64,000 bases of DNA from Uranotaenia lowii (lineage: Eukaryota > Arthropoda > Insecta > Diptera > Culicidae): NCBI RefSeq assembly GCF_029784155.1, contig NC_073692.1, forward strand, positions 158,129,582 through 158,193,581, written 5' to 3'. The notes under the pieces were generated by a model. That model worked only from the letters and a program-made list of their open reading frames with translations. It made no database searches and was not told where the DNA came from. Numbering within the stretch: position 1 is the first letter of the stretch; every line of letters begins with the position of its first letter. Shown here one piece after another: positions 31,360 to 38,125 of the stretch. The translations under genes and the position numbers were made by a program.

Positions 31360-32077
31360 TCAAACTCGACAGTATGGCGTGGCACATGCTCCGGTACTTG
31401 ACCCCACACATGAGCTACATTTAGGTAAGTTCTGCAATGAAAGTAAATCAAGAGAGTAACAGTAACTTTCACCAAGATTTTAAATTTTTAACTTACCACA
31501 CCCAAACAGCTATAGACAAACGGCGGGTATGTCGTCATGTCCATGGCACAGGAAGAGGTTGCCTCCAGCATCGTACAGTAGGGGCATCTACGGGTCTAAG
31601 AGATGACAAAAATAAACATCAGACTAGAGCATTTTTGATAAAATCGCTTTCCAAGTAATAAGGTTTCGTAGTTATGAAAACCTACTTTTGTTTAAGATCA
31701 AAAATAGATTCAAAACCTGAAGAGCTGTAGTATAAAAGTTTCACTTAAAAACTGAAAATTAAAATCAACTTTTTTTTTAACAATCTTACCCATATATAGC
31801 TCGTTGCAACCGGAGCTGGAGTTGTAGTAGTAGTAGTGGTAGGTTTAGCTGTTGTCGTGGTAGCTTTGGTTGTAGTCGTTGTTGGTTTAGTGGTAGTTGT
31901 TGTTGCTTTGGTGGTAGAAGTGGTTTTCACAGTTGTAGTTGTTGTCGAAGCGATCATCGCAGCGCTTCTAAGAGATGCCGCATTTTTCTTCGATGTTGTT
32001 TTCTCGTTACTCTCTTGGCTATCGGCATTGCAAAATAGCACAACACCGGCTAGGATGCAGAGGATGAAAAGCTTCAT
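31360..32077 (-). CDS. Secreted Thr-rich, cysteine-rich protein A (unrecognised family)
   Basis: Three exons on the minus strand: 32077-31790, 31595-31497 and 31431-31360, joined in phase 0, giving 152 residues. Introns are 194 and 65 nt with GT-AG ends. A signal peptide (MKLFILCILAGVVLFCNA) is followed by a Lys/Ser stretch, a mucin-like Thr-rich run with KPTTTTTKA-type units (about residues 45-90), then SYIW at the exon end. Exon 2 has cysteines C-x2-C-x8-C-x13-C; exon 3 has C-x2-C-x7-C-x4-C and ends CRV. A TATA box lies about 60 bp before the ATG. Likely extracellular and O-glycosylated; the function is unknown. Its close paralogue is at 37509-38125. Confidence 0.88.
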
Positions 32078-32130
32078 CTTGTCTGGTTAGTTTATCACTT
32101 CACGAAACTTGAAGACTTCAATGGCAGTGC

Positions 32131-32138
32131 TTTTTATA
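32131..32138 (-). promoter_or_regulatory. TATA box of gene A
   Basis: Minus strand TATAAAAA, starting 61 bp before the ATG. The spacing resembles the two paralogues. Confidence 0.65.
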
Positions 32139-32584
32139 GATCCCTTTTTTATCCCAAACGTGTGCCATCAAATATTTAGAAAATGAGGTTTATTTAACCA
32201 GATGCTTCGTGGAGGTCAAATTCAATCACGAAAATTGTGTGTGCTTTAAATTGACGTCAAGGGTGTTCAAATTTTAATTTTCATCCAGATGAAATAAAAA
32301 ATATATAATTTGCATAGCTGATCAAGAACTTGACAATTTTTATAATATGGTTGTCATTATATTTAATAGCAACAAATTTCCCTTACTATTCTTCAAGTTT
32401 GATTATAAGGTTTAATTCAATCATGATGTAAAATTTTCTCTTAAAACTTTTCATCTCGAGATATACGTTAAATTGGAATTTTGAAGTTTTTTTTCCGGAC
32501 AATACATCTAATTTCTTTCACTCCGAAATCCAACAGAAGATAACGTACAACAAAAGTAAAAATGTCGTTTTGTAGGGTTTTTAT

Positions 32585-33625
32585 TGCACTTTAAGGAAAA
32601 AATACATAAAAATCATTCGTCAGCTTTTCGGATGAATTTTCGAATTTTTTTTGTAATACCACCCATCATTTTTTGCAAAGAACTGCTGGTAACCTCATTC
32701 GCCATCTTGTTCCACCACTTTTCCATTTGAGTGGGTTTTTTCATGGTTCTGTCACATTTCTTCAGTTTGCCCAATATTTCTCGATGGGACGAAAATTCAG
32801 ACAGTTTGGTGGATTGATACTTTTTTCAACAAAATCGATCTTGTTCTCCTTATACCACTTAACGACATCCCGGATGTAAAGGCAGCTTGCCAGGTCCGGC
32901 CAGAACTTCACCGGACCTTTGTGGAACCGAATGAATGGCAAAACCCTCTTCTGGAGACATTCTTCTTTGAAAACATTTCTATTCATTGTGTCCCCAGTGA
33001 TGAAAATCTTAGTATTCTTTCCACAACTACAGATCCCTTGCCAAATCATCAACTTACGAGCAAACTTATTTGCGAAAACAAACGTGAATTTTACCGCAAC
33101 ATTCCCTTTACGCTTCGCAAGGTAAAATTTGTTACCGGGTATTTGTCCAAAATCCATTTTGACGTAAGTTTCGTCGTCCATCAAAATGCATCCGTTGTAC
33201 TTGGTCAACACTTTCTCGAACAACTTCCTTGCCCTGGTTTTGGCAGCCAGGTTTTGTTTCAGCGTCCTGTTGGGGTGTTTGCTTGCATGATACGACCACA
33301 AGCCTTCTCGCAAACAAATTCGTCGAGCTGTACTCTGATCACGCAAGAAGATTCCAGGATTATTGTGAAATGATCGAATAACCTTTGCTCGCAGCTTCCG
33401 GTCATACGTTCCACTTTAAGGCCTGCTTTGTTTTGCTCGATTCACCGTAAGGGTCTCCCGGTAACGTTTCAGCACCAAATTCACAGTCGATTTTGGATAT
33501 TTCAGGAATTTCGCGATCTTTACCCCTGACCACGTCGGTTTCTCAACGTGAGTGTGCAAAATTTTATCTGGAGGATCAACTTGACGTATTTCTTTCAATT
33601 TTGCATTTAAAAAACCTGAACACCC
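32585..33625 (-). mobile_element. DD37E (ITmD37E-like) mariner element 1
   Basis: Minus-strand transposase with its 5' end abutting the (TG)n tract. Terminal repeats were not resolved. It diverges from element 2 on the other side of the tract. Confidence 0.7.
32613..33610 (-). pseudogene. DD37E transposase pseudogene 1
   Basis: An N-terminal helix-turn-helix part (GVKIAKFLKYPKSTVNLVLK) ends at a stop near 33416. The catalytic part 33346-32762 has LMDDETYVKMDF, FWPDLA and RPIEKYWA. There are 37 residues between the second aspartate and the glutamate, so DD37E. A shift after YWA puts the C-terminus (to 32613) in another frame. All three catalytic acids remain, but the frame is broken at least twice. 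Confidence 0.8.
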
Positions 33626-33638
33626 CTCATTTTGAAGG

Positions 33639-34347
33639 TGTGTGTGTGTGTGTGTGTGTGTGTGTGTGTGTGTGTGTGTGTGTGCGTGTGTGTGTGTGTG
33701 TGTGTGTGCGTGTGTGTGTGTGTGTGTGTGTGTGTGTGTGTGTGTGTGTGTGTGTGTGTGTGTGTGTGTGTGTGTGTGTGTGTGTGTGTGTGTGTGTGTG
33801 TGTGTGTGTGTGTGTGTGTGTGTGTGTGTGTGTGTGTGTGTGTGTGTGTGTGTGTGTGTGTGTGTGTGTGTGTGTGTGTGTGTGTGTGTGTGTGTGTGTG
33901 TGTGTGTGTGCGTGTGTGTGTGTGTCTCTGTGTGTGTGTGTGTCTCTGTGTGTGTGTGTGTGTGTGTGTGTGTGTGTGTGTGTGTGTGTGTGTGTGTGTG
34001 TGTGTGTGTGAGTGTGTGTGTGTGTGTGTGTGTGTGTGTGTGTGTGTGTGTGTGTGTGTGTGTGTGTGTGCGTGCGTGTGTGTGTGTGTTTGTGTGTGTG
34101 TGTGTGTGTGTGTGTGTGTGTGTGTGTGTGTGTGTGTGTGTGTGTGTGTGTGTGTGTGTGTGCGTGTGTGTGTGTGTGTGTGTGTGTGTGTGTGTGTGTG
34201 TGTGTGTGTGTGTGTGTGTGTGTGTGTGTGTGTGTGTGTGTGTGTGTGTGTGTGTGTGTGTGTGTGTGTGTGTGTGTGTGTGTGTGTGTGTGTGTGTGTG
34301 TGTGTGTGTGTGTGTGTGTGTGTGTGTGTGTGTGTGTGTGTGTGTGT
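33639..34347. repeat. (TG)n / (CA)n microsatellite
   Basis: About 709 bp of almost pure TG with scattered C, T or A interruptions (for example TGTCTCTG at 33924 and 33942). The long Cys/Val and Thr/His open frames here are artefacts of the repeat. Assembly length may be unreliable. Confidence 0.97.
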
Positions 34348-34349
34348 TG

Positions 34350-36577: not shown

Positions 36578-36988
36578 TTACTGCACACAATATCTGTTAA
36601 CACAAAGTCCAGCTGATGTATTGATACAAGCGCTACAACTAGGTAGATTCTGAAAAAAAAGAGAAGAAATGTCATAGTAAGTTTAACATTTCATTTAAAC
36701 TATTCTTAATTTATCGATATTACCAATCCATTACAAATGTAGGAAAATGGAGCATATCTGGTGTCAGTTGTGCACGAAGTGGCCCCCAAAGTTGTGCATC
36801 CGAGGCACGTCTTAGACTGAAAAAAAAAATAAAAAAACAAAAAAAATTTAAAAAATAAATTTAAAAAATGTATAGTAATGACCACTTACAACAAACGTTC
36901 CAGCTGGTATGGGCGTCAAAGCTGCTGCGGTACTGTGTAAAACAGCCAACAGAACTAGTGCAAAAATGATGCCTCCGTACAGTTTCAT
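36578..36988 (-). CDS. Small secreted cysteine-rich protein B (same family, no Thr-rich linker)
   Basis: Three exons on the minus strand: 36988-36890, 36816-36724 and 36649-36578, all phase 0, introns 73 and 74 nt, 87 residues. The signal peptide MKLYGGIIFALVLLAVLHST ends near AAA; a short LTPIPAGTFV follows instead of the Thr-rich run. Exon 2 cysteines are C-x2-C-x7-C-x12-C and exon 3 C-x2-C-x7-C-x4-C. Exon 3 starts NLPSCSAC, matching NLPKCSSC of the paralogues. It is head to head with gene C. Function unknown; probably extracellular. Confidence 0.87.
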
Positions 36989-37052
36989 TTTGATAGATCA
37001 GAATAAGAACACTTTCGTAGCACCAATACAAGACGTGAGCTCGACCACCTTT

Positions 37053-37061
37053 CTTATATTT
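37053..37061 (-). promoter_or_regulatory. TATA-like box of gene B
   Basis: Minus strand AAATATAAG about 70 bp before the ATG. Confidence 0.5.
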
Positions 37062-37454
37062 AAAATCAATTGAAGATTTGATGGATGGGAAAATGCACGA
37101 GTTGTTTGAACAATTGGTTCCAAATCAAGGTGGAAAAGTAGAAAATTTGTTTTCAAATATTTGAAATAAATAAATAAAGGCATTTGATCAGTTTATTGAT
37201 AATCAGGTTTGCGTCAATCGAATTGGATTCTGTTTGAATAAGTGTCTGAAAAGTGATTGCATTTAAACTTATCCAAATAAAGCACGACCTCCAAAAAGGA
37301 TCAGTATTGACAAGATACATATAGTTTGTTTATAGATTTTAAATAAGGCATTGACGTCAATAAAGTGCACATAACCTTTTCCACTCCGACAACTGATTAA
37401 AGAAAACCTTGGATTCAGTTCAAATGATAGACTCTTCAATTAAAAACAAGTATT

Positions 37455-37460
37455 TATAAA
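37455..37460 (+). promoter_or_regulatory. TATA box of gene C
   Basis: TATAAA 54 bp before the ATG at 37509. Confidence 0.65.
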
Positions 37461-37508
37461 ATCAGCTGCTCAAAACAATTTTAGTTAGTGATAGCAATTG
37501 TTGGTGAA

Positions 37509-38125
37509 ATGAAGTGGTTCATAATCTTTTGTATTCTATCGGTGGCACTGCTTTGCAATGCCGATAGCAGGGAAAGCAAGGAGAAGAAATCCCGTAAAAC
37601 CACTGTCAAAATGGTTGCCAAGTCGGCAGCTGCAGTAACCACCACAACTACACGCAAGCCAACAACGACAACAACCTCTACAACTACCACTACTACAACA
37701 ACAACTGTTGCACCAGGTGCCGTTCCGAATTTTGATCCAACAAAAAGTTACATTTGGGTAAGGATCAAATACTTTTTCCAGTAGCAAATTTAAGAACATC
37801 GGTGAACGTTATATGTATGAATTTCATAGGATAACGTTTTGATCTTATGAAAACATAAGTTTATTCATCAAAATCTTGAATTTTTTTCAGACCCGTCGAA
37901 ATATTTATTGCATGAGTCCTGTTGGCACAGGGGTAGCTTATATGACTTCAACTTATGTACCATTTTGGTATGCCTGCTTGGAAGCGGTAAGATAACTTGT
38001 TTTTGCTGTACCATGTTTCATATCTGATTGCTTTTTTCTTTTTTTTCTCGCAGAATCTTCCGAAGTGTAGTTCGTGTGTTGGCTCTAGCACCGGAAATTG
38101 CGCCACCAACTATTGTCGTGTTTGA
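37509..38125 (+). CDS. Secreted Thr-rich, cysteine-rich protein C (paralogue of A)
   Basis: Exons 37509-37757, 37891-37986 and 38054-38125, phase 0, introns 133 and 67 nt, 138 residues. The start at 37509 gives a signal peptide MKWFIIFCILSVALLCNA, near-identical in plan to gene A; the frame is open a little upstream but has no ATG there. A basic stretch (KEKKSRKTTVK) and a Thr-rich run precede KSYIW. Exon 2 keeps only two of the four cysteines seen in A and B. Exon 3 (NLPKCSSCVGSSTGNCATNY) is almost identical to gene A. Function unknown; likely extracellular. Confidence 0.88.

What the first reader, a model, noticed from the sequence alone, without database searches (positions are those of the whole stretch)
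31360..38125. Cluster of three secreted Cys-rich proteins with optional mucin-like linker
Three genes share signal peptide, three exons, two phase-0 introns at equivalent places, and a C-terminal exon of the form NLPxCSxC-x7-C-x4-C. Two carry Thr-rich linkers and one does not. I know no named family with this layout. The arrangement (long Thr-rich members beside a short linker-less one, two genes head to head) is reminiscent of the Drosophila 68C salivary glue genes; that is an analogy of design, not a claim of homology. A secreted coating, mucin or salivary role is plausible.
Basis: partly seen in the sequence, partly recalled or inferred. Interest (0 to 1): 0.85.

Follow-up and report, generated by a model that had tools for sequence, protein, structure and literature searches.

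The report
Mosquito mucin-like glue-type gene trio
A frog-biting mosquito carries a small cluster of three related genes for proteins that appear to be secreted and share a cysteine-rich tail, two of them with a threonine-rich stalk; they look like parts of a mucus or glue, but where they are made and what they do is not known.

Summary
Three genes lie at 31360-38125 as described: hydrophobic N-terminus, three exons, two phase-0 introns at equivalent places, last exon NLPxCSxC-x7-C-x4-C. They are true paralogues: exon matches within the window reach E 1e-3 to 2e-12, synonymous change is at or near saturation, and exon 3 of A and C is under strong purifying selection. The species is almost surely Uranotaenia lowii. 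Gene C is already public, identical over 138 residues, as 'salivary glue protein Sgs-3-like'. A and B were not returned, nor any other relative; single-protein searches of the 1.08-Gb genome showed no credible fourth copy.

The shared module has eight cysteines in A and B, and C lacks the first and third together, as if one disulphide were lost. And the palindrome TTGACGTCAA occurs only twice in the window, 183 bp before A and 158 bp before C.

The Drosophila Sgs3/7/8 likeness is one of design: the defining phase-1 intron inside the signal peptide is absent. Best reading: a lineage-restricted secreted mucin-like family, two stalked members and one short cysteine-rich partner. Tissue and role are unproven.

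The parts
31790..32077 (-). gene A exon 1: hydrophobic N-terminus, basic stretch, Thr-rich stalk (42 residues, 30 Thr)
31497..31595 (-). gene A exon 2: first half of the Cys module, 4 Cys
31360..31431 (-). gene A exon 3: NLPKCSSC-x7-C-x4-C and stop
   Evidence: 15 synonymous to 6 nonsynonymous differences against C
32251..32260 (.). palindrome TTGACGTCAA, 183 bp before the start codon of A; TATAAA at -61
36890..36988 (-). gene B exon 1: hydrophobic N-terminus, no Thr stalk
36724..36816 (-). gene B exon 2: first half of the Cys module, 4 Cys
36578..36649 (-). gene B exon 3: NLPSCSAC-x7-C-x4-C and stop
36989..37508 (.). 520-bp divergent intergenic region between B and C
   Evidence: coordinates
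37351..37360 (.). palindrome TTGACGTCAA, 158 bp before the start codon of C (372 bp before that of B); TATAAA of C at -54
37509..37757 (+). gene C exon 1: hydrophobic N-terminus, basic stretch, Thr-rich stalk (23 residues, 19 Thr)
   Evidence: P0001
37891..37986 (+). gene C exon 2: module with 2 of the 4 cysteines (first and third absent)
   Evidence: P0001
38054..38125 (+). gene C exon 3: NLPKCSSC-x7-C-x4-C and stop
   Evidence: P0001

Best explanation
A lineage-restricted family of three secreted proteins in Uranotaenia lowii. A and C are small mucin-like proteins: signal peptide, basic stretch, a Thr-rich stalk expected to carry O-linked sugars, and a compact Cys-rich knob of about 55 residues. 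B is the same knob without a stalk. The likely working is that of a secreted gel or adhesive: glycosylated stalks hold water and space the molecules, knobs fold by disulphides and join or cross-link members, B being the short partner. A and C are probably switched on together in one secretory tissue through a shared CRE-like promoter site and a TATA box; a salivary gland is the likeliest single tissue. Shown: gene structure, paralogy, constraint on exon 3, shared palindrome. Inferred: secretion, glycosylation, disulphides, gland, function.
For: Gene models with GT-AG, phase-0 introns. C identical to an independent database protein. Exon homology with A-C exon 3 constraint, p 5.6e-8. Hydrophobic N-termini in all three, best 11-residue mean 3.2 to 3.5. 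Thr codons of exon 1 mix ACA, ACT, ACC and ACG (12, 11, 7, 3 in A; 10, 6, 5, 1 in C), so the stalk is not a simple trinucleotide expansion. 8, 8 and 6 module cysteines, positions 1 and 3 absent together in C. TTGACGTCAA only twice in 164 kb examined, before A and before C; TATAAA at -61 and -54. In Aedes aegypti, CrebA, said there to bind CRE sites, drives secretory genes in the salivary gland (PMC3599648, passages).
Against: No transcript or protein evidence was available; no signal-peptide or glycosylation predictor was run. The database returned neither A nor B. The palindrome was noticed after the fact; the A-C upstream alignment is only moderately better than chance (7 of 500 shuffles reach it), and A-B and B-C upstream show nothing (105 and 126 of 500). 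Several factors bind full CRE sites (recalled), so CrebA and the salivary gland are guesses. B has no TATAAA or AATAAA, only AAATATA and AATAAT. Exon 2 of C is poorly conserved (nonsynonymous proportion 0.48 to A, 0.59 to B). The only structure model is unusable (mean pLDDT 45).
Confidence: 0.6

Rival explanations
1. A reproductive secretion (male accessory gland or egg coat) rather than a salivary or mucous one: the same mucin-like proteins act in a mating plug or in sticking eggs together.
For: The anatomy fits any exocrine gland; a CRE-like site and TATA box do not single out the salivary gland.
Against: Nothing here points to reproductive tissue in particular; no expression data.
Confidence: 0.15
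2. Bioactive saliva or defence peptides: the Cys knob itself acts on a host or microbe, and the Thr stalk only aids secretion or solubility.
For: Small Cys-rich secreted form; a weak cysteine-spacing match to scorpion potassium-channel peptides (E 0.043 and 0.39).
Against: Those matches cover about 22 residues and are not significant; the stalk in 2 of 3 members is unusual for such peptides (recalled).
Confidence: 0.1
3. A gut-lining or peritrophic mucin.
For: Mucin-like stalk with a Cys-rich end.
Against: No chitin-binding domain matched in any of the 3 proteins (E up to 10, subject to HMMER's filters).
Confidence: 0.1
4. Partly non-functional: only C is an active gene, A and B are decaying copies or prediction artefacts.
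For: Only C was returned by the database; B lacks a clear TATAAA and AATAAA.
Against: Open frames, intact splice sites and selection against amino-acid change in pairs with A (p 5.6e-7 with C, 1.3e-4 with B) and, weaker, B-C (p 0.006); all 8 module cysteines kept in A and B.
Confidence: 0.05

Closest known systems
Drosophila Sgs3/Sgs7/Sgs8 salivary glue cluster (68C)
   Same: Tight cluster; signal peptides; a stalked Thr-rich member beside short Cys-rich members without repeats; KPTTT units in D. melanogaster Sgs3 and KPTTTTT in A.
   Different: Sgs genes share a phase-1 intron inside the signal peptide (PMC6352337); here there are two phase-0 introns further downstream. No Sgs protein of a fly was returned.
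'salivary glue protein Sgs-3-like' [Uranotaenia lowii] (P0001)
   Same: It is gene C itself, identical over 138 residues.
   Different: The name claims more than my results support: the Thr run is the only likeness to Sgs3 that I saw.
Pfam New_glue (PF21827) and Mucin (PF01456)
   Same: Sub-threshold matches: New_glue 24.4 bits (cut-off 31) on C; Mucin 28.5 on A and 20.6 on C (cut-off 34.7).
   Different: All below the curated cut-off; New_glue (residues 1-66 of C) and Mucin on C (19-69) stop short of the Cys module, Mucin on A (5-108) reaches its first dozen residues; B matches neither.
Mosquito salivary mucins (Nematocera mucin I, 8.3 kDa mucin, SG3 mucin)
   Same: Mucin families of mosquito salivary glands (PMC4801386, passages).
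   Different: None was returned; their sequences were not compared directly.

Membership tests
Drosophila Sgs1/3/7/8 glue family | Shared phase-1 intron interrupting the signal peptide near codon 10 (PMC6352337 passages; PMC9409817 passages) | tested here: not met
   Both introns are phase 0; the first follows codon 96, 33 and 83 of A, B and C
Drosophila Sgs1/3/7/8 glue family | N- and C-terminal sequence similarity among members | tested here: inconclusive
   No fly Sgs protein returned by word-based database searches; no direct alignment to Sgs3/7/8 was run
Drosophila Sgs1/3/7/8 glue family | Cluster of long Thr-rich and short Cys-rich members | tested here: met
   (A and C stalked, B not)
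Drosophila Sgs1/3/7/8 glue family | Expression in the late larval salivary gland | not testable with these tools
   no expression data
New_glue (PF21827) | Score above the gathering cut-off | tested here: not met
   C 24.4 bits against 31; A and B not listed
Mucin-like glycoprotein (PF01456) | Score above the gathering cut-off | tested here: not met
   A 28.5 and C 20.6 bits against 34.7; B not listed
Peritrophin / chitin-binding mucin | Peritrophin-A (chitin-binding) domain | tested here: not met
   Not listed for any of 3 proteins at E up to 10 in Pfam, subject to HMMER's filters
Secreted mucin (broad sense) | Ser/Thr/Pro-rich stalk | tested here: met
   A and C only; B has none
Secreted mucin (broad sense) | Cleavable signal peptide | tested here: inconclusive
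   Hydropathy only; confident helix 4-16 in the P0001 model; no dedicated predictor
Secreted mucin (broad sense) | O-glycosylation of the stalk | not testable with these tools
   no predictor or protein data

The most novel reading that the evidence does not exclude
An undescribed eight-cysteine module, so far seen in one mosquito only, has independently arrived at the Drosophila glue design: a co-regulated cluster of stalked mucins plus one stalk-less cross-linker. This would be convergent evolution of a two-component protein glue or mucus in flies separated by more than 200 million years (divergence recalled).
Probability: 0.25. Interest if true: 0.6.

Novelty: new variant of a known kind. 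Interest (0 to 1): 0.36.

Why it matters
If expressed together in one gland, the trio would be a compact case of convergence on a mucin-plus-cross-linker secretion, in a mosquito genus with little molecular work. The short module and the natural loss of one cysteine pair make its disulphide pairing testable. It also shows how a name such as 'Sgs-3-like' can rest on a Thr run, and that two neighbours of the same family may be missing from the annotation.

Tried and rejected
Sgs homology: not claimed, on intron phase and position. Chitin-binding mucin: no domain listed. Scorpion potassium-channel peptide likeness (E 0.043 and 0.39, about 22 residues): rejected as cysteine spacing. One PDB match to a viral fusion protein at E 9.6: chance. 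NCBIfam: weak matches only (E 0.0064 or worse), far below cut-offs. Genome matches outside the cluster: searches list 5 further places (E 0.25 to 1.32, 0 to 2 stops each); their loci L006, L007, L014, L016 and L017 hold no N[LIVM]PxCxxC...C...C motif. Profile scan of the window and 50 kb on each side: the three genes, then nothing better than E 0.72. Structure: AlphaFold2 of P0001 alone, mean pLDDT 45, so no fold search was run. Upstream likeness of B to A or C: none beyond shuffles. Literature: the ten paper searches listed no title on this family or on a Uranotaenia salivary transcriptome; only part of the papers found was listed (20 of 48, 6 of 15, 10 of 12, 8 of 10), and the library holds open-licence papers only.

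The first protein-database search is a failed control: it returned nothing, although P0001 shares 14 consecutive residues with the query; the likely cause is that the length limit followed the 61-residue region. Only searches are counted.
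Full report
Identity of the sequence. The window is C2:158129582-158193581 of a 1.08-Gb assembly of 2009 contigs. The protein database returned one relative, P0001, 'salivary glue protein Sgs-3-like [Uranotaenia lowii]', identical to the spliced product of gene C and on a contig of 437,140,353 bases, the length of C2. The source is therefore almost certainly Uranotaenia lowii, a culicine mosquito; a title listed calls it frog-biting.

Gene anatomy. A and B are on the minus strand, C on the plus strand. 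Exon lengths: A 288, 99, 72 nt (152 aa); B 99, 93, 72 (87 aa); C 249, 96, 72 (138 aa). All nine exons are multiples of three; all six introns begin GTAA and end AG, with lengths 194 and 65 (A), 73 and 74 (B), 133 and 67 (C). The first intron follows SYIW in A and C and GTFV in B; the second precedes NLP in all three. TATAAA lies 61 nt before the start codon of A and 54 before that of C; B has only AAATATA at -73. AATAAA lies 42 nt past the stop of A and 99 past that of C; B has only the variant AATAAT.

More than chance. tblastn of single exons in the window gives 2e-12 for A-C exon 3, 7e-7 for A-B and B-C exon 3, 1e-4 for A-B exon 2, 1e-3 for A-C exon 2 and 1e-6 for the A-C N-terminus; B-C exon 2 did not match at E up to 1. 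By Nei-Gojobori counting over exons 2 and 3, synonymous proportions are 0.71 to 0.79, at or near saturation; nonsynonymous proportions are 0.33 (A-C), 0.37 (A-B) and 0.51 (B-C); A-C exon 3 alone has 0.12. Fisher tests on rounded counts give 5.6e-8 (A-C exon 3), 5.6e-7 (A-C), 1.3e-4 (A-B) and 0.006 (B-C). Exon 2 of A-C is much less conserved (0.48). Introns 1 and 2 of A and C do not align beyond shuffles (42 and 440 of 500). So these are old duplicates kept by selection on the protein, chiefly on exon 3.

The module. Exons 2 and 3 encode 54 to 56 residues. A has eight cysteines spaced C-x2-C-x8-C-x13-C-x7-C-x2-C-x7-C-x4-C; B has the same with x7 and x12. C has six: the first and third are absent together. 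An even count kept by a double change suggests that these two form a disulphide in A and B; this is inference. Exon 2 also shares Y-x-P-F-x-Y-x-C in all three.

The stalk. A has 42 residues with 30 Thr, C has 23 with 19 Thr, B none; four Thr codons are used in A and C. B's exon 1 ends TPIPAGTFV against A's TPAPVATSYIW, so the stalk is an insertion or deletion between the N-terminus and a similar exon end; which state came first cannot be told.

Promoter. TTGACGTCAA occurs twice in the 64 kb (0.07 expected from base composition), at 32251 and 37351, 183 bp before A and 158 bp before C, and not at all in 100 kb of flank. It is the core of the best A-C upstream alignment (7 of 500 shuffles as good; A-B 105, B-C 126). 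It was found after the fact. In Aedes aegypti, CRE sequences, which CrebA binds, were found upstream of secretory genes, and knockdown of crebA lowered such genes in the salivary gland (PMC3599648, passages). This mildly favours a secretory gland. A CrebA preprint, PMC12262295, was seen in passages only; it speaks of CrebA in many tissues, so it does not single out the salivary gland.

Extent of the family. Four protein queries of the whole genome (modules of A, B and C, and the A N-terminus) returned the three genes plus five weak places whose loci lack the motif. Sensitivity is limited: the A query saw B's exon 3 only at E 0.20 and listed neither B's nor C's exon 2, so a fourth copy as diverged as B or more could be missed. 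Profiles of exons 2 and 3, run on the window and 50 kb on each side, gave the three genes and then nothing better than E 0.72. In the protein database of 5.77 billion sequences, 1 of 56 and 1 of 460 candidates reached E 10, both times P0001; relatives must share exact five-residue words, so distant ones in other mosquitoes may exist. One search was a failed search.

Known families. Pfam gives sub-threshold New_glue and Mucin matches resting mainly on N-terminus and stalk; PDB gives nothing credible. In D. melanogaster, Sgs3, Sgs7 and Sgs8 form a 4.5-kb cluster in which Sgs3 has internal repeats and the other two, about 75 aa, do not, and all share a phase-1 intron in the signal peptide (PMC6352337, passages and section 11; PMC9409817, passages). 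PMC6352337 proposes that the short Cys-rich members bind the threads by disulphides, which is the mechanism I borrow for B. The likeness in design is close; the intron feature is not met, so membership is not claimed.

Verdict. The finding is real and the observation accurate. It is a small, probably lineage-restricted, apparently secreted mucin-like family with a glue-like layout. What it does, and where, needs expression data. One member is already public under a borrowed name, which lowers the novelty; the module itself has no described relative in the searches named here.

Noticed in passing
window 32765-35031: A 710-bp (GT)n array (33638-34347, 355 copies, 97% matches) lies between two transposase-like frames on opposite strands (32765-33415 minus, 34525-35031 plus), 44% identical over 126 residues; Pfam gave neither a family, so 'transposase-like' is by eye. 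The block separates gene A from B and C.
   Followed up: partly
window 35489-35609: Inverted repeat, arms of 40 nt, 95% complementary, 41 nt apart; looks like a small mobile element.
   Followed up: no
window 16009-20061: A cyclic-nucleotide phosphodiesterase exon (PDEase_I, E 1e-24, at 16009-16440) and, on the other strand, a reverse-transcriptase frame at 19126-20061 (RVT_1, E 1e-19); the frame at 14470-14991 gave no Pfam match. The phosphodiesterase is a possible synteny anchor.
   Followed up: partly
window 25038-28958: Retroelement pieces: an RNase_H frame (25038-25916, minus), a copia-type gag frame below cut-off (26758-27102) and a retroviral SH3-like frame (28263-28958).
   Followed up: no
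window 41778-42290: Tc3-type transposase frame on the minus strand (HTH_Tnp_Tc3_2, E 3e-14).
   Followed up: no
window 30761-30931: Degenerate CTCTA pentamer array downstream of gene A.
   Followed up: no
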